A DNA stretch of 64,000 nucleotides from Patulibacter minatonensis DSM 18081 (GTDB lineage Bacteria > Actinomycetota > Thermoleophilia > Solirubrobacterales > Solirubrobacteraceae): positions 1,161,369 to 1,225,368 of the forward strand of contig NZ_KI912613.1 in NCBI RefSeq assembly GCF_000519325.1. Direction: 5' to 3'. Below, piece after piece: positions 13,012 to 45,321 of the stretch. The position numbers were made by a program, and so were the translations under genes. The notes under the pieces are model-generated. The model saw only the letters and a list, made by a program, of their open reading frames with translations. It made no database searches and was not told the DNA's origin. Position 1 is the first letter of the stretch, and each line of letters opens with the position of its first letter.

Positions 13012-14805
13012 TCAGTCGTTGAAGTTCCGTCCCGCCGTGACCTCCGCCACGAACCCGGCCCGGACCACGAAGTCGCCGAAGCGCTCGCCGTCCTTGCGAT
13101 CCTTCGCGTAGGCGCCGAGGCACTCGTCGAGGACCTCGAGGATCACGTCCTCGCCGACGTTCTCGCGGACCATCTTGTTCAGCCGCTGGCCGTGGAAGCC
13201 GGCGCCGAGGTAGAGGTTGTACTTGCCGGGCGCGCGGCCGGTGAGGGCGATCTCGGCGATGTACGGGCGGGCACAGCCGTTCGGACAGCCGGTCATGCGG
13301 ATCGTGATCGGATCCTCCGTCAGCCCGTGCTTCTCGAGCTGACCCTCGATCTTCGTGATGAGCTCGGGGAGGTACCGCTCGGCCTCGGCCATCGCCAGGC
13401 CGCAGGTCGGCATCGCGACGCACGCCATCGAGTTCAGGCGCAGCGCGCTGCGGCCCTTCGTCGGCGCGTTGTCGATCCCGTGCTCGGCCAGGATCGCCTC
13501 GACCTTCGGGCGGTCCTCGGGGAGGACGTCCGAGAGGATCACGCTCTGGTTCGGCGTCAGGCGGAAGACGCACAGGCCGGCGTCGGCGACCGCGCGCAGC
13601 CCGGTCATCAGGCGCCGCTCGCCGCGGTCGATGATCCGACCGCTCTCGATGAACAGCGTGCAGTGCTCGAGGCCGTCGTCGCCGGTGGTCCAGCCCAGGT
13701 CGTCGCCGTTGGACGTGAACGCGAACGTCTTCGCCGGGGCGAGCGCAAAGCCGAGGCGGCGCTCGATCTCGCCCGTGATGACGTCGAGGCCCTTGTCGTC
13801 GATCGTGTACTTGAATCGCGCGTGGGCACGGGTCACGCGGTCGCCGAAGTCGCGCTGGACGCCCATCACGGCGTCGAGCGTCGGCTGCAGCTGGTCGACG
13901 TCGATGTAGCCGATGACGTCGCCGAGGCGCGGGTAGGTCGCCGGGGCGTTGTCGGCACGGCCCATGCCGCCGCCGATCACGACGTTGAAGCCCTTGAGCT
14001 TGCCGCGGTTCGCGATCGCGACGAAGCCGAGGTCCTGCGAGTAGATGTCGATGTCGTTGCTCGGCGGGACCGCGAAGCCGATCTTGAACTTCCGCGGCAT
14101 GTACTGCTTGCCGTAGAAGGGCTCCTCGGACTCGCCGCGCGGCTGCTCCGGCTTCTCGCCGAACCAGATCTCCTCGTACGCGGACGTCTTGTGGATGACG
14201 TGGTCGGAGGCGAGCTGCGCCTGCTCGTAGACCTGCTTATGGAGCTTCGTGAGGCCCGGGTGCACGCCGCTCATCACCGTGCGGGCGACGTCGCCGCAGG
14301 CGGCCTTGCCATCGAGCCCGACGTCGCGCAGGCCGAGCATGACCTCGCGCAGGGCGTTGCGGTTGAGGTAGTGGAACTGGAACGTCTGCCGCGTCGTGAG
14401 GCGGAACTGGTCGTTCCCGTACGTGCGACCCAGCTCGTCGATCTTCAGCCACTGCTCGGCCGTGCAGACCCCGCCCGGCATGCGGCCGCGGAGCATGAAC
14501 GTGAAGAAGGGCTCCAGCTTCTGCCGGCGCCGCTCGTCGCGGATGTCACGGTCGTCCTGCTGGTAGATCCCATGGAACTTCATGAGCTTGTTGTTGTTCT
14601 CGTCGACGGCGAGCGTGATCTCGTCGATGAGGTCCGTCGTGATCGAGCCCGCGAGGTAGTCGGACTCGAACTTCATCCGCTCCTCGGGCGCCAGCTCCTC
14701 GAGCGGGCGGGAGAGGTCGCGGCTGCGGTCGATCTCGACCGTGGCGGCCGGCGGCGCGGGCTTCTTCGCCGCGGGCTTCCGGGTCGTCTTCGTCGTGGGG
14801 GCCAT
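13012..14805 (-). CDS. cysI: Assimilatory sulfite reductase haemoprotein subunit
   Basis: A 597-residue sirohaem/4Fe-4S enzyme that reduces sulfite to sulfide. The Cys ligands of the cluster are in CVAMPTCG (Cys 462 and 468) and GCPNGC (Cys 507 and 511). The duplicated ferrite-reductase-like halves are visible, including LTTRQTFQFHYL in the first. The first 20 residues are a Lys/Ala/Pro-rich tail not seen in the enteric enzyme. It follows cysJ with a single base between the stop and the ATG, so the two are co-translated. The presence of a flavoprotein partner favours the NADPH-dependent enzyme. Confidence 0.9.
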   Translation of the reverse strand: MAPTTKTTRKPAAKKPAPPAATVEIDRSRDLSRPLEELAPEERMKFESDYLAGSITTDLIDEITLAVDENNNKLMKFHGIYQQDDRDIRDERRRQKLEPFFTFMLRGRMPGGVCTAEQWLKIDELGRTYGNDQFRLTTRQTFQFHYLNRNALREVMLGLRDVGLDGKAACGDVARTVMSGVHPGLTKLHKQVYEQAQLASDHVIHKTSAYEEIWFGEKPEQPRGESEEPFYGKQYMPRKFKIGFAVPPSNDIDIYSQDLGFVAIANRGKLKGFNVVIGGGMGRADNAPATYPRLGDVIGYIDVDQLQPTLDAVMGVQRDFGDRVTRAHARFKYTIDDKGLDVITGEIERRLGFALAPAKTFAFTSNGDDLGWTTGDDGLEHCTLFIESGRIIDRGERRLMTGLRAVADAGLCVFRLTPNQSVILSDVLPEDRPKVEAILAEHGIDNAPTKGRSALRLNSMACVAMPTCGLAMAEAERYLPELITKIEGQLEKHGLTEDPITIRMTGCPNGCARPYIAEIALTGRAPGKYNLYLGAGFHGQRLNKMVRENVGEDVILEVLDECLGAYAKDRKDGERFGDFVVRAGFVAEVTAGRNFND

Positions 14806-14806
14806 C

Positions 14807-16687
14807 TCAGTACACGTCCAGGAGGTAGCGGTGGTCGCGCTGCAGCTCGGTCAGGTGGGCGTCGGCGGCCTCGCGGTCCAGGCCGCCGTGCTCGACGGCG
14901 ATCTCGGCCAGCGCGGTGTGCACGTCGGGCGCCATGGCGTTCGCGTCGCCGCAGACGTAGATCCGGGCGCCGTCCTGCAGCCAGTCCCACACCTCGGCGC
15001 CCTTCTCGCGCAGGCGGTCCTGCACGTACCTCTTCGTCGCGGAGTCGCGGGAGAACACGGGGTCGAGCCTCGTCAGCGTCCCGTCCTTCAGGAGGTCCTG
15101 CCACTCCACCTGGTAGAGGAAGTCGCTGCGGAAGTTCCGCTCGCCGAAGACGAGCCAGTTCTTCCCCTGCGCGCCGCGGGCCTCGCGCTCCTGGAGGAAC
15201 GCGCGGTACGGCGCGACCCCGGTGCCGGCGCCGACCATGATGATCGGCGCGTCGTCGTCGGGCAGGCGGAAGTGGTCGTTCCGCTGCACGTACACCGGGA
15301 CGGTCGCGTCCTCGTGCAAAAGGCGCGCGAGGTGCCCGGAGGCCACACCGGTGCGGCCGGACCCGTGCAGGTCGTACTGCACCGTGGAGACCGTGAGGTG
15401 CGCCTCGTCCGGTGCCGCGGCCAGGCTCGACGCGATCGAGTAGAGGCGCGGCTGCAGCGGCCGGAGGCCCTTGACGAACTGCTCGGCCTCGATGCCCGCG
15501 ACCGGGAAGCGGTCGACGAAGTCCGAGACGTGGTGCTCGTGGAAGAACGCGGTGCGGGCCTTCGCGTCGCCGGCCTTCAGGGCGGCGAGCTCGTCGGAGC
15601 CCGTGAGCTCGGCCCACTGCTCGAGGAACCGCGGGGTGGCCGCCGTGATCTCGAACGTGCTCGTGAGCGCGTCGCGGAGGGCGACCTCGCCCTGCTTCGT
15701 CGTGACCGGCGCGTCGGCCGACAGCCCGGTCTTCTCGAGCAGCAGGTCGACGAGCGCGGGGTCGTTCTCCGGGACGACGCCGAGCGCGTCGCCGGGCTCG
15801 TACGTGAGACCCGAGTCCTCGAGGGACAGCTCGACGTGCCGGGTCTCCTTCGTGGAGCCCCGGCCGGTCAGCACGACGTTGTCGAGGACGGCGGCGGAGA
15901 ACGGGTGCTTCTTCGAGTGCGCGGTGGCCGGCGCGACCCCGCCCGCGGGGGCGGAACCGACGGCCGCGGCCGTCGGGGCGCCGGCCGTCGCGGGCGCCTC
16001 GTCGGGCGTGAGCCGCTCGACGACGCCGGCGATCCAGGCCGCGGCATCGTCCTCGTAGTCGACGTCGCAATCGACGCGGTCGGCGATCCGCTCGGCCCCG
16101 AGCTCCTCGAACCGCGCGTCGACCTGCTTGCCGGCGGAGCAGTAGTGCTCGTACGTGGAGTCGCCGAGCGCGAGGACCGAGAACCGGACGCCGTCGAGCT
16201 TCGGCGCCTTGCGGCCGGCGAGGAACTCGAAGAAGCCCAGCGCGTTCGGCGGCGGATCGCCCTCGCCGTGCGTGCTGGTGATGACGAGGACGTCCTGCTC
16301 GTCCTTCAGCGCGCGCGGCTTGTAGTCGGACATGTCGGCGACCTGCGCCTCGAGGCCCTGGGCCTTCGCGGCGGCCTGCAGCTCGCCGGCGAGCTCGGTG
16401 GCGTTGCCGGTGTCCGTGCCGACGAGGATCGTCAACAGGCGGGCGGCAGGGCCCGCGGCGAGCGGCTCGGGGGCCACGACACCGGCGGCCGCGCCGTCCG
16501 GGGCGACGCCGTTCGTGACGGCGCCGTTCGACGCCGCACCGTCCTGGGCGGGGACCGCGGTGCCGTGGCCGGCGATGCCGGCGAAGTAGCCGCTGAGCCA
16601 GATCGCCTGGTCGCGGTCGAGGGACCCCGCCAGACGGTCGAGCTGCTCGAGGTTCTCGGGCGTGAGTGTGGGGACGGGAGGTCGCAA
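14807..16687 (-). CDS. cysJ: Assimilatory sulfite reductase flavoprotein subunit
   Basis: A 626-residue diflavin reductase passing electrons from NADPH to CysI. The N-terminus matches the CysJ type (LTPENLEQLDRLAG, then WLSGYFAG). A variable linker leads to a flavodoxin domain (GTDTGNATELAG near residue 95, LGDSTYEHYC). A second Ala/Pro linker precedes the FAD domain (RLYSIASS), then the NADPH domain (GAGTGVAPYRAFLQ, YVCGDANAMA), ending LLDVY. The only plausible start that keeps the CysJ N-terminus is the TTG at 16687, which has no clear ribosome-binding site. No ATG or GTG is in frame nearby upstream. Confidence 0.88.
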   Translation of the reverse strand: MRPPVPTLTPENLEQLDRLAGSLDRDQAIWLSGYFAGIAGHGTAVPAQDGAASNGAVTNGVAPDGAAAGVVAPEPLAAGPAARLLTILVGTDTGNATELAGELQAAAKAQGLEAQVADMSDYKPRALKDEQDVLVITSTHGEGDPPPNALGFFEFLAGRKAPKLDGVRFSVLALGDSTYEHYCSAGKQVDARFEELGAERIADRVDCDVDYEDDAAAWIAGVVERLTPDEAPATAGAPTAAAVGSAPAGGVAPATAHSKKHPFSAAVLDNVVLTGRGSTKETRHVELSLEDSGLTYEPGDALGVVPENDPALVDLLLEKTGLSADAPVTTKQGEVALRDALTSTFEITAATPRFLEQWAELTGSDELAALKAGDAKARTAFFHEHHVSDFVDRFPVAGIEAEQFVKGLRPLQPRLYSIASSLAAAPDEAHLTVSTVQYDLHGSGRTGVASGHLARLLHEDATVPVYVQRNDHFRLPDDDAPIIMVGAGTGVAPYRAFLQEREARGAQGKNWLVFGERNFRSDFLYQVEWQDLLKDGTLTRLDPVFSRDSATKRYVQDRLREKGAEVWDWLQDGARIYVCGDANAMAPDVHTALAEIAVEHGGLDREAADAHLTELQRDHRYLLDVY

Positions 16688-16847: not shown

Positions 16848-16864
16848 GGAAACCCAGGTATTCC
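16848..16864. promoter_or_regulatory. Candidate sulfur-regulon operator upstream of cysJI
   Basis: GGAAA-N7-ATTCC lies about 160 bp before the cysJ start. It matches, with one base change, the GGAAT-N7-ATTCC unit in front of cysHDN at 41354-41370. AT-containing half-sites are rare in this GC-rich sequence, so the resemblance is suggestive. The regulator is unknown. Confidence 0.35.
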
Positions 16865-16896
16865 GCGAAGGAAGGGACCAGGGGCGGCCGCGACGG

Positions 16897-38134: not shown

Positions 38135-39481
38135 CTACCGGATCATGCCGCCGGCGACGGTGTCGTTCGTGCCCTCCTCGATGAGGATGAACGCCCCCGT
38201 CGCGCGGTCCCGCAGGTAGGTGTCGCCGACGAGCGGGCGCTTCACGCGGATGCGCACGCGGCCGATGTCGTTGAGCTCGAGGCCCTGGGCGTCCTCGCGC
38301 TCGAGCGTGTGGAGGTCGACGCGGTCGATCACGGCGTCGACCTTCGCCGCCGTCGTCGTGGTCGTGTGCTTGAGGAGGTAGCGGGCGCCCGGCTTCAGGG
38401 CGCGGTCGCTCATCCAGCAGACGTCGGCCTCGATCTCGCGCAGCGTGATGCCGGCCGGGTCCTCGTCGGCACCGACGATCACGTCGCCGCGGCTGACGTC
38501 GACGTCGTCCTCGAGGTGCACCGTGACCGACATCGGGGCGGTCGCGACGTCGAGGTCGCCGTCCAGCGTCTCGATCCGCGCGATGCGGGACCGCACGCCC
38601 GACGGCAGGACCTGGACCTCTTCGCCCGGGCGCAGCACGCCGCCGGCGACCTGGCCGGCGTAGCCGCGGTAGTCGTGGAGGTCCTCGGCGTCCCAGCGGC
38701 CGCCGGCGGTGTCGCCGCCCTCGCCGGGGCGGATGACCCACTGCACCGGGAAGCGCAGGTCGGTGAGGTTGCGGTCGGTCGAGACCTGGACGGTCTGCAG
38801 GTGCCGCAGCAGCGTCGGGTGGTCGTCGTCCTCCGGGTACCACGCGGGGAGCTCGCCGCGGTCGACGACGTTCTGGCCCTGCAGCGCGGAGATCGGGATG
38901 ACGTGGATGTCCGGGATCCCCAGCTGCGACGAGATCCGGGTGGTCTCGGCCTCGATCGCGCGGAAGACGCCCTCGTCCCAGTCGACGAGGTCCATCTTGT
39001 TGACCGCGAACGTCACGTGGCGGATGCCCAGCAGCGACGCGATGAACGTGTGGCGGCGCGTCTGCTCGATGACGCCCTGCCGCGCGTCGACGAGGACGAT
39101 CACGAGGTCGGCCGTGGAGGCGCCCGTGACCATGTTGCGCGTGTACTGCACGTGGCCGGGGGTGTCGGCGAGGATGAAGCTGCGGTCGCCGGTCGTGAAG
39201 TAGCGGTAGGCGACGTCGATCGTGATGCCCTGCTCGCGCTCGGCGCGCAGGCCGTCGGTCAGCAGCGAGAGGTCGACGGCGCCCTCGCCGTGCCGGCGGA
39301 CGGACGCCTGCTCGACCTGCTCGAGCTGGTCGGCGAGGACCTGCTTGGAGTCGTAGAGCAGCCGGCCGATGAGGGTCGACTTGCCGTCGTCGACGGAGCC
39401 GGCGGTGGCGACGCGCAGCAGGTCGGCCCGCAGGAGCGGGTCGTCGGACGCGACGGTCGGCGTGGGCGCGAGCTCGGACAT
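38135..39481 (-). CDS. cysN: Sulfate adenylyltransferase subunit 1 (GTPase)
   Basis: A 448-residue GTPase that drives ATP sulfurylase. The G motifs are GSVDDGKSTLIGRLLYDS, ILADTPGHVQYTRNM and FAVNKMDLVDW. EF-Tu-like beta-barrel domains follow. The protein ends at IR without an APS kinase domain, unlike the CysNC fusions of some bacteria. It works with CysD, whose stop overlaps the cysN ATG by four bases. Confidence 0.93.
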   Translation of the reverse strand: MSELAPTPTVASDDPLLRADLLRVATAGSVDDGKSTLIGRLLYDSKQVLADQLEQVEQASVRRHGEGAVDLSLLTDGLRAEREQGITIDVAYRYFTTGDRSFILADTPGHVQYTRNMVTGASTADLVIVLVDARQGVIEQTRRHTFIASLLGIRHVTFAVNKMDLVDWDEGVFRAIEAETTRISSQLGIPDIHVIPISALQGQNVVDRGELPAWYPEDDDHPTLLRHLQTVQVSTDRNLTDLRFPVQWVIRPGEGGDTAGGRWDAEDLHDYRGYAGQVAGGVLRPGEEVQVLPSGVRSRIARIETLDGDLDVATAPMSVTVHLEDDVDVSRGDVIVGADEDPAGITLREIEADVCWMSDRALKPGARYLLKHTTTTTAAKVDAVIDRVDLHTLEREDAQGLELNDIGRVRIRVKRPLVGDTYLRDRATGAFILIEEGTNDTVAGGMIR

Positions 39482-40437
39482 CAGAAGTACCCCTGGGCCT
39501 TGCGGTCTTCCATGGCGGCCTCGGACGCGCGGTCGTCGGCGCGCGTCTCGCCGCGCTCGGTGATGCGCGTGGCGGCGATCTCGGTGACGACCTGGTCGAG
39601 CGTGGTGGCCGTCGACTCGACCGCACCCGTGATCGTGAGGTCGCCGACCGTGCGGTAGCGGACCGACAGGGTCTCGACGGTCTCCCCGTCCTGCGGCTGC
39701 AGGTACGGCGAGACGGCGTAGAGCATCCCGTTCCGGCGGACGACCTCGCGCTCGTGGGCGAAGTAGATCGACGGGAGCTCGAGCTCCTCCTCGGCGATGT
39801 ACTGCCAGACGTCGAGCTCGGTCCAGTTCGAGATCGGGAAGACGCGGACGTTCTCGCCCTGCCGGAGCCGGCCGTTGTAGAGGTTCCAGAGCTCGGGGCG
39901 CTGGTTCTTCGGGTCCCAGCCGCCGAAGTCGTCGCGGAAGCTCATGATCCGCTCCTTCGCCCGGGCGCGCTCCTCGTCGCGGCGCGCGCCGCCGAAGCAG
40001 GCGTCGAACTCGTGCTCCTCGATCGCGTCGAGCAGCGTCTGCGTCTGCTGCTGGTTGCGCGACGTGCCCTGCTTCGCCGGGTCGTAGCCGTCGACGACGC
40101 GGCCGGCGTCGATCGTGTCCTGGACCTTCGCGACGATCAGGCGCTCGCCGAGCTCGGCGGCCCGGCGGTCGCGGTACTCGAGGACCTCGTCGAAGTTGTG
40201 GCCCGTGTCGACGTGCACCAGCGGGAACGGGAAGCGCCCGGGGCGGAACGCCTTCTCGGCCAGGCGCAGCAGGACGATGGAGTCCTTGCCGCCGGAGAAC
40301 AGGAGCGCCGGGCGCTCGAGCTCGGACGCGACCTCGCGCATGACGTGGATGGCCTCGGACTCCAGGGCCCGGAGCTTGGAGAGCGCGTCAGCGCCGCCGA
40401 GGTCGGCGGGATCGATCGGGGTCATGGAGGAGGTCAT
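39481..40437 (-). CDS. cysD: Sulfate adenylyltransferase subunit 2
   Basis: A 318-residue catalytic subunit that makes adenosine 5'-phosphosulfate from ATP and sulfate. The PP-loop is LLFSGGKDSIVLLRLA. VHVDTGHNFDEVLEYRD and FGGARRDEERARAKER are family hallmarks, and NWTELDVWQYIA follows. It starts 42 bp after the cysH stop and is coupled to cysN. Confidence 0.93.
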   Translation of the reverse strand: MTSSMTPIDPADLGGADALSKLRALESEAIHVMREVASELERPALLFSGGKDSIVLLRLAEKAFRPGRFPFPLVHVDTGHNFDEVLEYRDRRAAELGERLIVAKVQDTIDAGRVVDGYDPAKQGTSRNQQQTQTLLDAIEEHEFDACFGGARRDEERARAKERIMSFRDDFGGWDPKNQRPELWNLYNGRLRQGENVRVFPISNWTELDVWQYIAEEELELPSIYFAHEREVVRRNGMLYAVSPYLQPQDGETVETLSVRYRTVGDLTITGAVESTATTLDQVVTEIAATRITERGETRADDRASEAAMEDRKAQGYF

Positions 40438-40479: not shown

Positions 40480-41172
40480 TCACGCGTCCTCCTGGTGCAG
40501 ACCGCACTCGATCTTGTCCGAGCTGGCCCAGCGGCCCTCGCGGCCGGCGCCCTGCTTCGTGCAGTGGAAGCAGCCGATCGAGGCGTAGTCCTGGTCGTGC
40601 AGCGGGTTGTACGGCAGGTCGTTGGCGAGGACGTACCGCCAGACCGCCTTGTCGTCCCAGTCGGCGAGCGGGTTGACCTTGACGAGGCCGAACGCGTCGT
40701 CCCACTCGACCTTGCGGGCGCCGGCGCGGGCGGGCGACTGGTCGCGGCGGATGCCGGTGATCCAGGCGTCCAGCGTCTTCAGCCCGTCGCGGAGCGGGCC
40801 GACCTTGCGGATGCCGCAGCACTTCGAGGGATCGCGCTCCCACAGCCGGTCGCCGTGCTCGGCGGCCTGCTGGGCGAGGCTCGGACCCTGCCAGCGCTCG
40901 ATCGTCGTGTCGTAGCGCTCCTCGGTCCGCTTCCACAGCTCGTACGTCTCGTCGAACAGCACGCCGGTGTCGAGCGCGAAGACGCGGGCGTCGGGCTTCG
41001 CCGCGAAGACGAGGTCGAGCAGCACCGACTCCTCCTTCTGGAAGGAGCAGGCCAGCGCGATCTGCGGGTGGTAGGCGTCGAGCGCCCACGCGACGACCTC
41101 GGCGGCCGAGGAGGCCTCCAGGTCGGGCAGGTCCGGCTTCACCGGTGCGGCGTCGTTCGAGGTGGTGCTCAT
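40480..41172 (-). CDS. cysH: Adenylyl-sulfate (APS) reductase, Fe-S type
   Basis: A 230-residue reductase giving sulfite. Besides the PP-loop-like fold (ACSFQKEESVLLDLV, FALDTGVLFDETYELW) it has the Cys pairs CC (118, 119) and CFHC (201, 204) that bind a 4Fe-4S cluster. It also has the catalytic Cys in ECGLH (223). The cluster marks it as using APS rather than PAPS, which agrees with the absence of an APS kinase gene. It is the first gene of cysH-cysD-cysN. The ATG is preceded by AGGAG. Confidence 0.92.
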   Translation of the reverse strand: MSTTSNDAAPVKPDLPDLEASSAAEVVAWALDAYHPQIALACSFQKEESVLLDLVFAAKPDARVFALDTGVLFDETYELWKRTEERYDTTIERWQGPSLAQQAAEHGDRLWERDPSKCCGIRKVGPLRDGLKTLDAWITGIRRDQSPARAGARKVEWDDAFGLVKVNPLADWDDKAVWRYVLANDLPYNPLHDQDYASIGCFHCTKQGAGREGRWASSDKIECGLHQEDA

Positions 41173-41200: not shown

Positions 41201-41272
41201 TCAGGCCGGCGTCCCGGCGACCGCGTGCTCGTCGTGCTCGACGAGGTTCGTGGACGGCGGGGCGGCGGTCAT
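41201..41272 (-). CDS. Possible 23-residue leader peptide upstream of cysH
   Basis: A short frame starts at ATG 41272, about 40 nt after the inferred transcription start, and ends 28 nt before the cysH ATG. It encodes a peptide with STNLVEHDEHAV in the middle. It has no run of Cys codons, so cysteine attenuation is not indicated, and no clear ribosome-binding site. It may be a chance frame. Confidence 0.25.
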   Translation of the reverse strand: MTAAPPSTNLVEHDEHAVAGTPA

Positions 41273-41316
41273 GAGGGTCCGTCGAGGGTGAGGCGGCGAT
41301 ACGAGGGACCACCAAA

Positions 41317-41322
41317 AGTATC
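41317..41322 (-). promoter_or_regulatory. Possible -10 element of cysHDN
   Basis: GATACT on the minus strand. It lies about 145 nt before cysH and just downstream of the GGAAT/ATTCC operator pair. Confidence 0.4.
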
Positions 41323-41332
41323 GAACGGTTAT

Positions 41333-41371
41333 GGGAATTACCGGATTCCATCTGGAATAGCACGTATTCCC
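41333..41371. promoter_or_regulatory. Double operator upstream of cysHDN
   Basis: Four half-sites alternate: GGGAAT at 41333-41338, ATTCC at 41345-41349, GGAAT at 41354-41358 and ATTCCC at 41366-41371. They form two inverted repeats, GGAAT-N6-ATTCC and GGAAT-N7-ATTCC, with centres about 20 bp (two helix turns) apart, next to the likely -35. A related half-match lies upstream of cysJI. The regulator is unknown; an Rrf2- or LysR-type sulfur regulator is possible. Confidence 0.6.
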
Positions 41372-41481
41372 GACAGGCATAGCGGGGATCCTGCCGCCGG
41401 GGCGCGCCGGATGACGCACCGCCGTCGTGGCCTCCGCCACCGGCCGCGGAGGGCACCCGCCTCGGGATGCCCGCCGTCCCC

Positions 41482-42774: not shown

Positions 42775-43992
42775 CTACGCCCGCAGGAAGCCCCGGACCA
42801 CGTCGATGTGGTCCGGCAGCGGCAGCAGGAACGAGTCGTGCCCCCACGGCGACCGGACGTCCCGTCGCTCGACGGGGACGCCCGCGGCGGACAGCGTCGC
42901 GGCGATGCGGTCGCCGTGCTCGGGCCCGAAACGCCAGTCGCTCGTGAACGTCTCGACGAGGAACCGCGTCCCGGCCTCCCGGACGCGGTCGAGCCGACCC
43001 GCGGCGTCGGGGGCGTGAAACGGCGCGAAGTCGTCCATCACCTTCGACAGGTACAGGTAGCTCAGCGCGTCGAAGCGCTCGAGGAACGCGGTCGCCTGGT
43101 GGTCGAGGTAGTGCTCGACCTCGAACGACGGCGCGAACCAGTCGTGGCCGTCGCGCGGCGGGGTCGCGCGCGGGCCGTCGATGGCCGATCCGACCCCGCC
43201 GACCCGGCGCCGGCGCCCGAACTTCGTCGCGAGCGCCTCCTCCGACACGTAGGTCACGTGCCCGAGCATCCGGGCGGCGGCGAGGCCGGCCCGCGGGATC
43301 CGCCCCGTCCCGACGTAGCGCCCGCCCGCGAAGTCCGGGTCGCGCAGGATCCCCTCGCGGGCGGCGGTGGACAGCGCGAGGTTCTGCGCCGTGAGGGCGG
43401 AGGAGGCGCAGACGACGACGGCGCGCTCGACCTCCTCCGGCGCCTCCAGCGCCCACTCGAGGACCTGCATGCCCCCGAGCGACCCGCCGACCGCCGCCGC
43501 GACCCGGTCGACGCCGAGGTGCCGCACCAGGGCGCGCTGGACGCGGACGAGGTCGGCCACGGTGAACGCCGGGAAGTCCAGGCCGTAGGCCTCACCGGTC
43601 GACGGGTCGGTGGAGCTCGGGCCCGTCGTGCCGCGGCAGCCGCCGAGGAGGTTCGCGCAGACGACGAACCAGCGGTCCGTGTCGATCGCCCGGCCGGGTC
43701 CGACGAGGGCGTCCCACCAGCCGCGCCGCTCCGGGTCGCCGTGGTGCCCGGCGGCGTGCGCGTCGCCCGTCAGCGCGTGGCAGAGGACGACCGCGTTGGA
43801 CGCCGCCGCGTCGAGCGTCCCGTAGGTCTCGTACGCGACCTCGACGGGGCCCAGACGGGCCCCGTTGTCGAGGACCAGCGGGGCGTCGGGCGTGAACAGG
43901 ACGACCCGCTCGGTCCCGGTGCGACCGAGGCCCGGGCCGAGGTCCGGGGCGGACCCGTCGCCGCCCCCTCCCGTGATCGTCCCGTGGGTCAC
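42775..43992 (-). CDS. metX: Homoserine O-acetyltransferase
   Basis: A 405-residue alpha/beta hydrolase that activates homoserine for methionine synthesis. The nucleophile Ser is at residue 171 in VGGSLGGMQVLEWAL. The substrate-binding block VVCANLLGGCRGTTGPSS is diagnostic, and the catalytic His is near the end in SPWGHDSFLLP. It follows metY by 12 bp in the same operon. The acyl donor could be acetyl-CoA or succinyl-CoA, which sequence similarity alone does not settle. The first 25 residues are Gly-rich and variable. Confidence 0.88.
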   Translation of the reverse strand: MTHGTITGGGGDGSAPDLGPGLGRTGTERVVLFTPDAPLVLDNGARLGPVEVAYETYGTLDAAASNAVVLCHALTGDAHAAGHHGDPERRGWWDALVGPGRAIDTDRWFVVCANLLGGCRGTTGPSSTDPSTGEAYGLDFPAFTVADLVRVQRALVRHLGVDRVAAAVGGSLGGMQVLEWALEAPEEVERAVVVCASSALTAQNLALSTAAREGILRDPDFAGGRYVGTGRIPRAGLAAARMLGHVTYVSEEALATKFGRRRRVGGVGSAIDGPRATPPRDGHDWFAPSFEVEHYLDHQATAFLERFDALSYLYLSKVMDDFAPFHAPDAAGRLDRVREAGTRFLVETFTSDWRFGPEHGDRIAATLSAAGVPVERRDVRSPWGHDSFLLPLPDHIDVVRGFLRA

Positions 43993-44004
43993 CGGCGTCC
44001 GGCG

Positions 44005-45321
44005 TCAGGTGGCGACGACGGCCGCGGCCTGCGACTTGGCGAGCGCCTGGTCGAGGTCGGCGCGCAGGTCGTCGATGTGCTCGATGCCGACCGACAGGCG
44101 GACGGCGTCGGGCGTGACGCCGGCCGCGGCGAGCTCCTCCTCGTTCAGCTGCGAGTGCGTCGTCGAGGCGTTGTGGATCGCCAGCGACTTCGCGTCCCCG
44201 ATGTTCGCCAGGTGCGAGAACAGCGAGAGCGACTCGATGAACGTGCGGCCGGCCTCGAAGCCGCCCTTCACGCCGAAGGAGACGAGCGCGCCGCCACCGC
44301 CGCGGAGGACCTTCTTGCCGACCTCGTGGTAGGCGTTGCCCTCCAGGCCCGGGTGGTTGACCCAGGCGACGGCGTCGTGGGACTCGAGGTGGCGGGCGAC
44401 CGCCAGCGCGTTCTCGTTGTGGCGCTCGAGCCGCAGGCTCAGCGTCTCGACGCCCTGGAGGATCAGGAACGCGTTGAACGGCGACAGCGCCGCGCCGGTG
44501 TTGCGCAGGAGCACCGTGCGGGCGCGCAGCACGTAGGCGATCGGCCCGGCGGCCTCCGTCCAGACGACCCCGTGGTACGACGGGTCGGGCTTCGTGAGGC
44601 CCGGGAAGCGCTCCGGCTGGGCGGACCAGTCGAAGTTCCCGGAGTCGACGATCGCGCCGCCGATGGACGTGCCGTGGCCGCCCAGGAACTTCGTCAGCGA
44701 GTGGACGGCGACGTCGGCGCCCTGCTCGAAGACGCGAGCGCCGACGGGCGTCGGGACGGTGTTGTCGACGATCAGCGGCAGGCCGGCGGCGTGCGCGGCC
44801 TCGGACCAGCGCGGGATGTCGAGCACGTTGAGCCGCGGGTTGCCGATCGTCTCGCCGAAGACGAGCTTCGTCCGGTCGTCGGCCAGACGGGCGACGGCGT
44901 CCGGGTCGTCGGCGTCGGCGAAGCGGACCTCGATGCCGTACTGCGGCAGCGTGTGCGCGAAGAGGTTGTAGGTCCCGCCGTAGAGCTGGGAGACCGAGAT
45001 GATGTTGTCGCCGGCGTTCGCGATGTTCAGGACGGCGTAGGTGACGGCCGCCTGCCCCGAGGCCGTGACGAGCGCCGCCGGGCCGCCCTCGAGCTGCGCG
45101 AGCCGCTGCTCGAGCACGTCCCACGTCGGGTTCATGATCCGCGTGTAGATGTTGCCCGGCGTCTTCAGCGCGAAGAGGTCGGCCCCGTGCTGGACGTCGT
45201 CGAAGACGTACGACGTCGTCTGGTAGATCGGCACCGCGCGCGCGTTCGTGGCGCCGTCGGGCTCCTGCCCACCGTGCAGCGCGATGGTCTCGGGGTGGTA
45301 CTGGGGCTGCTCGTCGCTCAT
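44005..45321 (-). CDS. metY: O-acetylhomoserine aminocarboxypropyltransferase (sulfhydrylase)
   Basis: A 438-residue PLP enzyme that joins sulfide to O-acetylhomoserine to give homocysteine. The start [20 protein letters not shown] is typical of MetY. The cofactor Lys is at residue 211 in [17 protein letters not shown]. Tyr and Arg of the neighbouring subunit are in [18 protein letters not shown]. It is the first gene of metY-metX and uses the sulfide from CysJI. The upstream region carries a 10-bp inverted repeat. Confidence 0.92.

What the first reader, a model, noticed from the sequence alone, without database searches (positions are those of the whole stretch)
41333..41371. Two stacked GGAAT/ATTCC inverted repeats before cysHDN
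Half-sites GGAAT-N6-ATTCC and GGAAT-N7-ATTCC lie with centres about 20 bp apart in an AT-rich island next to the likely promoter of the APS reductase/ATP sulfurylase operon. Such an arrangement suits cooperative binding of two dimers of a sulfur regulator. I do not recognise a described actinobacterial sulfur regulator with this site.
Basis: partly seen in the sequence, partly recalled or inferred. Interest (0 to 1): 0.6.

Follow-up and report, generated by a model that had tools for sequence, protein, structure and literature searches.

The report
Tandem LysR-regulator sites before sulfate-reduction operon
The repeats are a real pair of regulator binding sites, grouped differently from how they were first read; they sit in front of the sulfate-reduction genes of the soil bacterium Patulibacter and most likely bind a LysR-type sulfur (probably sulfite) regulator that has not been described in this part of the Actinobacteria.

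Summary
The grouping is wrong. Across the genus the conserved unit is ATKCC-N5-GGMAT, a T-N11-A LysR box. Two units lie in tandem with right halves exactly 21 bp apart, centred at about -65 and -43.5 from a TACTTT -10 element, in six of eight cysH promoters. The same tandem also precedes cysJ in P. medicamentivorans and the sulfate-binding-protein gene in P. americanus. The unit lies in front of one LysR-type gene in 6 of 7 Patulibacter orthologues and 11 of 17 orthologues from other genera (0.02 expected in all 24). That gene is missing in one species whose cysH promoter lacks the sites. Outside the genus it often sits beside YeiH or SLAC1 transporter genes, and it is closest to the sulfite-sensing YeiE/FinR regulators. 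Best explanation: an autoregulated YeiE/FinR-like LysR regulator binds cooperatively and activates cysHDN. The DNA side is well supported. Effector and sign of regulation are inferred; nothing was tested at the bench. New member of a known kind.

The parts
41366..41380 (-). Distal LysR-type recognition box ATGCC-TGTCG-GGAAT (T-N11-A), centre about -65
   Evidence: Conserved within 1 mismatch in 6 of 8 Patulibacter cysH promoters at -65/-66; top matrix hit of the window
41345..41358 (-). Proximal (activation) box ATTCC-AGAT-GGAAT, N4 spacer, centre about -43.5
   Evidence: Identical in G002 and G007; right half GGAAT 21 bp from the distal right half in all six
41334..41338 (-).
   Evidence: Exact form not conserved; a related AAT/GGAAT element lies nearby in several relatives
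41315..41320 (-). Presumed -10 element TACTTT of cysHDN (start predicted near 41308)
   Evidence: G[CA]TA[CG]TTT conserved in seven of eight genus cysH upstreams, GCTACCTT in the eighth
41201..41272 (-). Short ORF of 23 codons in the cysH leader
   Evidence: Translation; similar ORF in G002 and G007
40480..41172 (-). cysH, APS/PAPS reductase
   Evidence: PF01507; NF002537 above cut-off
39481..40437 (-). cysD, ATP sulfurylase small subunit
   Evidence: NF003587, TIGR02039 above cut-off
38135..39481 (-). cysN, ATP sulfurylase large subunit
   Evidence: TIGR02034 above cut-off
16860..16874 (-). Probable single, one-mismatch box CTTCC-TTCGC-GGAAT about 180 bp before cysJI
   Evidence: Second-best matrix hit of the window; similar position to the boxes of G005 and G007
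14810..16681 (-). cysJ, sulfite reductase flavoprotein (frame matched; start not determined)
   Evidence: TIGR01931 above cut-off
13012..14805 (-). cysI, sulfite reductase hemoprotein
   Evidence: NF010029 above cut-off

Best explanation
The element is a tandem operator for a LysR-type transcriptional regulator (LTTR). On the minus strand the recognition site is ATGCC-TGTCG-GGAAT (41366-41380, T-N11-A, centre about -65) and the activation site is ATTCC-AGAT-GGAAT (41345-41358, centre about -43.5), in front of a TACTTT -10 with no good -35. Two dimers, 21 bp (two helical turns) apart on one face of the DNA, would bind cooperatively and, when the effector changes the tetramer, contact RNA polymerase to switch on cysHDN. 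The regulator is most likely the LysR-type protein encoded at G000:C1:2180121-2181035, outside the window; it carries the same box in its own promoter and so probably represses itself. It resembles the sulfite-sensing YeiE/FinR group, so sulfite or a related sulfur compound is the likely effector. Shown by computation: the conserved site, its geometry, the link to cysH, cysJ and sulfate-uptake promoters, and the link to this LysR gene. Inferred: binding itself, activation rather than repression, and the effector.
For: (1) ATKCC-N5-GGMAT-N16-GGMAT with at most 1 mismatch finds the cysH promoter in 6 of 8 Patulibacter genomes, the cysJ promoter in P. medicamentivorans and the sulfate-binding-protein promoter in P. 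americanus, plus a few hits elsewhere; the reversed control finds 0 in all 8 genomes (neighbours). (2) Constant geometry: distal centre 53-54 bp before the -10 in all six cysH promoters, giving -65/-66 and -43.5/-44.5. (3) The box was then looked for in front of the LysR gene: exact in 6 of 7 genus orthologues, 27-30 bp before the ATG, and in 11 of 17 orthologues of other genera at 44-55% protein identity; 0.019 expected in 24 shuffled upstreams. The other LysR genes of this genome have no exact box nearby. (4) G003 lacks the LysR orthologue and lacks the sites at cysH. (5) A matrix built only from LysR promoters of other genera ranks the distal cysH site 1st and a cysJI upstream site 2nd of 63,986 window positions. 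(6) The LysR is 33% identical to E. coli YeiE and 24% to CysB; best solved relatives include YeiE structures. Outside the genus its neighbours include YeiH (PF03601) or SLAC1 (PF03595) genes. In two species a TauE/SafE gene lies next to cysH in the operon.
Against: No binding or expression data. The window's proximal box has N4 instead of N5 spacing. P. americanus has the LysR but no tandem at cysH (it is at the sulfate-binding-protein gene instead, closer to the -10 than -43). The cysJI site in the window is single, one mismatch, and 82 bp before the presumed -10. The link to cysH is known only within Patulibacter: cysH promoters of other genera lack the box even where the LysR is present. 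Sulfite activating a sulfite-producing enzyme would be positive feedback, so sign or effector may differ. The LysR scores below the NCBIfam cut-off for YeiE (151 against 480 bits).
Confidence: 0.82

Rival explanations
1. Same DNA architecture and same LysR protein, but it works like CysB: it senses sulfur starvation through O-acetylserine or N-acetylserine (or another signal) and activates cysHDN, rather than sensing sulfite.
For: Targets span uptake, APS reduction and sulfite reduction, as in a cysteine regulon; sulfite induction of a sulfite-producing enzyme would be odd.
Against: Protein is closer to YeiE (33%) than to CysB (24%); outgroup neighbours are YeiH/SLAC1 transporter genes.
Confidence: 0.3
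2. One reading: GGAAT-N6/7-ATTCC palindromes bound by two dimers of a Rrf2- or TetR-type regulator.
For: Both palindromes are perfect and unique in the genome.
Against: This pairing is absent at cysH in all seven other Patulibacter genomes, while the regrouped pairing is conserved and recurs at cysJ, the sulfate-binding-protein gene and the LysR gene.
Confidence: 0.06
3. The sites bind a different LysR-type protein (for example the paralogue encoded next to the candidate), and the box at the candidate's promoter is cross-regulation.
For: A second LysR gene lies directly upstream of the candidate in this genome and in P. medicamentivorans.
Against: In other genera the box accompanies the candidate's orthologue, with YeiH or SLAC1 genes as the other neighbours; G003 has lost the candidate together with the sites.
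Confidence: 0.1
4. Chance repeats in an AT-rich promoter region, without a function.
For: None beyond the single-genome view.
Against: 0 expected by shuffling; conserved in six species with fixed spacing.
Confidence: 0.02

Closest known systems
YeiE of Salmonella/Cronobacter/E. coli (LysR-type, sulfite-binding; controls yeiH and, in E. coli and C. sakazakii, cysJI; PMC12880088)
   Same: LysR-type, 33% identity; YeiH-family gene as neighbour in two outgroup orthologues (one divergent, one same-strand); box in its own promoter; sulfite-related targets.
   Different: Below the NCBIfam YeiE cut-off; ATTCC-N5-GGAAT is not in the E. coli yeiE-yeiH intergenic region; here linked to cysHDN and sulfate uptake, in Actinobacteria (Thermoleophilia).
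FinR of Pseudomonas aeruginosa (LysR-type, controls fprA; PMC5302815)
   Same: Overlapping dyads with TCC...GGA cores at -46 to -83 of the target promoter and over its own promoter; negative autoregulation.
   Different: Box TATCCATATTCTGGATA (TATCC-N7-GGATA) rather than ATTCC-N5-GGAAT; target is a ferredoxin-NADP reductase gene.
CysL of Bacillus subtilis (LysR-type activator of cysJI; cited in PMC5322559)
   Same: LysR-type regulator of sulfite reductase genes.
   Different: Primary paper not held; protein and site could not be compared.
CysB of enterobacteria (activator of the cysteine regulon)
   Same: LysR-type, upstream sites at several cys promoters (general knowledge).
   Different: Only 24% identity over part of the protein; far below the CysB-family cut-off.
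McbR/CysR of Corynebacterium glutamicum (PMC2580772)
   Same: Actinobacterial regulators of sulfur assimilation.
   Different: McbR is a repressor and CysR a ROK-type regulator; neither is LysR-type.

Membership tests
LysR-type regulator operator (recognition plus activation site) | T-N11-A imperfect dyad as recognition site | tested here: met
   ATKCC-N5-GGMAT contains T-N11-A; distal box in six cysH promoters within 1 mismatch
LysR-type regulator operator (recognition plus activation site) | Recognition site near -65 and activation site near -40 of the target | tested here: met
   -65/-66 and -43.5/-44.5 from the inferred -10; the start site itself is not mapped
LysR-type regulator operator (recognition plus activation site) | Regulator gene carries the box in its own promoter | tested here: met
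   17 of 24 orthologues exact, 0.019 expected
LysR-type regulator operator (recognition plus activation site) | Direct binding by the regulator | not testable with these tools
   Needs an experiment
LysR-type transcriptional regulator (protein) | HTH_1 plus LysR_substrate domains above cut-off | tested here: met
   PF00126 and PF03466
YeiE (NCBIfam NF040889 equivalog) | Score above the curated cut-off | tested here: not met
   151.3 bits against 480
YeiE/FinR-like sulfite regulators | YeiH-type gene next to the regulator | tested here: inconclusive
   YeiH in two outgroup loci, SLAC1 in several others, neither seen next to the gene in the Patulibacter loci examined
YeiE/FinR-like sulfite regulators | Binds sulfite | not testable with these tools
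   Stretches shared with YeiE in the effector domain are suggestive only
CysB subfamily (NCBIfam NF009327) | Score above the curated cut-off | tested here: not met
   53.6 bits against 402
   Absent at cysH in all seven other Patulibacter genomes

The most novel reading that the evidence does not exclude
A LysR-type regulator family of Solirubrobacterales, with operator ATTCC-N5-GGAAT, ancestrally guards sulfite export (YeiH/SLAC1). In Patulibacter it was rewired to command the whole sulfate-assimilation pathway (uptake, APS reduction, sulfite reduction), with promoter geometry that may make the sulfite-producing step respond oppositely to the sulfite-removing steps.
Probability: 0.3. Interest if true: 0.6.

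Novelty: new member of a known kind. Interest (0 to 1): 0.45.

Why it matters
I found no described sulfur regulator in Thermoleophilia, a little-studied class of Actinobacteria. This gives a candidate protein, its operator, and a small predicted regulon (cysHDN, cysJ(I), sulfate uptake, itself), all directly testable in cultured Patulibacter. It would extend the recently recognised YeiE/FinR-type sulfite regulators to a distant phylum and suggests a rewiring from sulfite defence to sulfate assimilation.

Tried and rejected
A wide search of that pattern in 151 genomes gave mostly scattered hits that I did not follow up. Rrf2 candidates: no supporting link found, not pursued. Other LysR genes of the genome: no exact box nearby. 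The LysR paralogue next to the candidate: not favoured, because in other genera the box accompanies the candidate's orthologue. E. coli yeiE-yeiH intergenic region checked for the box: absent. Rfam: no RNA family in the window above gathering score, so no known riboswitch or T-box. Promoter and terminator scans around the site: nothing. The papers on CysL's site and on the YeiE crystal structure were not held.

Full report
WHAT IS THERE. The window comes from a 5.52-Mb single-contig genome; its nearest relatives by cysH are Patulibacter species (Solirubrobacterales, Thermoleophilia). On the minus strand lies cysH-cysD-cysN (40480-41172, 39481-40437, 38135-39481). The two repeats are exactly where the finding says and are the only GGAAT-N6/7-ATTCC matches in the window and in the whole genome.

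REGROUPING THE HALF-SITES. I compared the cysH upstream regions of all eight Patulibacter genomes held. What is kept in six of the eight is an AT[TG]CC...GG[AC]AT dyad and a second right half GGAAT exactly 21 bp downstream of the first. On the minus strand the window reads ATGCC-TGTCG-GGAAT, 7 bp, ATTCC-AGAT-GGAAT, 24 bp, TACTTT.

TEST OF THE REGROUPED UNIT. The pattern ATKCC-N5-GGMAT-N16-GGMAT with at most one mismatch was searched in the eight genus genomes. It found the cysH promoters of six species, a second promoter in P. medicamentivorans, one in P. americanus, and a handful of other hits. The reversed control gave no hit in any genome. The P. medicamentivorans hit lies about 180 bp before cysJ. 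The P. americanus hit lies before a sulfate ABC transporter binding-protein gene followed by a permease gene. The positions are fixed: the distal centre is 53 or 54 bp before the -10 in all six cysH promoters, that is at -65/-66, and the proximal centre is at -43.5/-44.5 (assumes that the -10 hexamer spans -12 to -7). This, with T-N11-A spacing and no recognisable -35, is the textbook layout of a LysR-type activator (general knowledge of the family; T-n11-A also in PMC5002191).

THE REGULATOR. One of the ATTCC-N4/5-GGAAT hits of the genus-wide search lay just before a LysR-type gene in P. medicamentivorans. Its orthologues are in seven of eight genus genomes, including this one at G000:C1:2180121-2181035. 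Six of the seven have an exact box, and the seventh one mismatch, 27-30 bp before the start of the matched frame, probably over the promoter's own -10. Orthologues in other genera (44-55% identity) have an exact box upstream in 11 of 17 cases. Over all 24 upstreams 0.019 matches are expected after dinucleotide shuffling. The other LysR genes of this genome have no exact box nearby. G003 (96% complete), the only genus genome without the orthologue, also lacks the sites at cysH. P. americanus keeps the gene but has the tandem at the sulfate-uptake gene instead of cysH. So gene and sites go together in all eight genomes, though only one loss is seen.

A CROSS-CHECK. A matrix built only from the 11 LysR-promoter boxes of other genera ranks window position 41366 first (17.9 bits) and 16860 second (13.2 bits) of 63,986. 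The next best, 7.5 bits, is position 41344, one base off the proximal cysH box. A shuffled window reaches 17.9 in 7 of 400 cases, and 0.3 positions of 13.2 bits or more are expected per shuffled window. The first rank is not fully independent, because the boxes were recognised with a pattern derived from cysH promoters. The second rank is a new prediction: 16860-16874 is about 180 bp before cysJI, the sulfite reductase operon of this same window (14810-16681 and 13012-14805), at about the same distance as the full tandem in P. medicamentivorans and a single exact box in G007. It is single and degenerate here, and far from the presumed -10, so I treat it as probable at best.

WHAT THE REGULATOR SENSES. 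The protein has standard LysR domains. It is 33% identical to E. coli YeiE and 24% to CysB. Solved YeiE structures are among its best matches in the structure databank, and the effector domain shares the T-[IV]-G-x-[YF] and RExxSGTR stretches with YeiE. It scores below the curated cut-offs of every named LysR subfamily shown, so I do not call it YeiE. Outside the genus its neighbour genes are YeiH-family (PF03601, two loci) or SLAC1-family (PF03595, several loci). In Salmonella YeiE represses itself and activates yeiH in response to sulfite, and YeiE regulates cysJI in E. coli and C. sakazakii (PMC12880088). FinR of P. aeruginosa binds TATCCATATTCTGGATA, in a region at -46 to -83 of its target and over its own promoter (PMC5302815). 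In two Patulibacter genomes a TauE/SafE-family gene follows cysH in the operon. Sulfite or a close relative is therefore the likeliest effector. A caution: cysH makes sulfite, so induction of cysH by sulfite would be positive feedback; either the sign at cysH differs or the effector is something else, such as O-acetylserine.

MECHANISM AND WHAT IS SHOWN. Shown by sequence: site, spacing, conservation, promoter positions, association with sulfur promoters and with one LysR gene. Inferred: that this protein binds, that it activates cysHDN and represses itself, and what it senses. In the model the distal box anchors one dimer and the proximal box takes a second dimer two helical turns away; the extra half-site near -35 may be where the proximal dimer shifts on effector binding.

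LIMITS. The link to cysH is confined to Patulibacter: none of the cysH upstreams outside the genus that I scanned has the box. No experiment has been done. Regulator and operator look new for this clade, but the kind of system is known.

Noticed in passing
L265:1478, L262:1469, L260:2565, L261:2572 (sulfate-binding-protein promoters); also L056:1418 and L091:1809 near cysH of another genus: A second, different palindrome AAACYC-N5-GRGTTT (mostly with GATC in the spacer) lies close to a TAATAT-type -10 in Patulibacter sulfate-uptake promoters, exact in four of the six genus loci scanned, and near cysH outside the genus; looks like a repressor operator of another sulfur regulator.
   Followed up: partly
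window 41201-41272, minus strand: A 23-codon ORF (MTAAPPSTNLVEHDEHAVAGTPA) in the cysH leader, out of frame with cysH and ending just before it; a similar short ORF occurs in sister genomes G002 and G007.
   Followed up: partly
L179:13787-14674 and L185:567-1463: A TauE/SafE-family (sulfite exporter) gene follows cysH in P. medicamentivorans and G006, but not in the window.
   Followed up: yes
L182:5598-5612: A single exact ATTCC-N5-GGAAT box about 100 bp upstream of a 4Fe-4S ferredoxin gene in P. medicamentivorans; could be a further target.
   Followed up: partly
window 42775-45321, minus strand: Genes resembling homoserine acetyltransferase (alpha/beta hydrolase) and O-acetylhomoserine sulfhydrylase (Cys/Met PLP enzyme) near cysHDN; no Rfam riboswitch above gathering score in the window.
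   Followed up: no
L268:9606-11000 and L271:5760-6941: A second LysR-type gene lies directly upstream of the candidate regulator in this genome and in P. medicamentivorans (the frame called at L268:9606-11000 is unreliable); its role is unknown.
   Followed up: no
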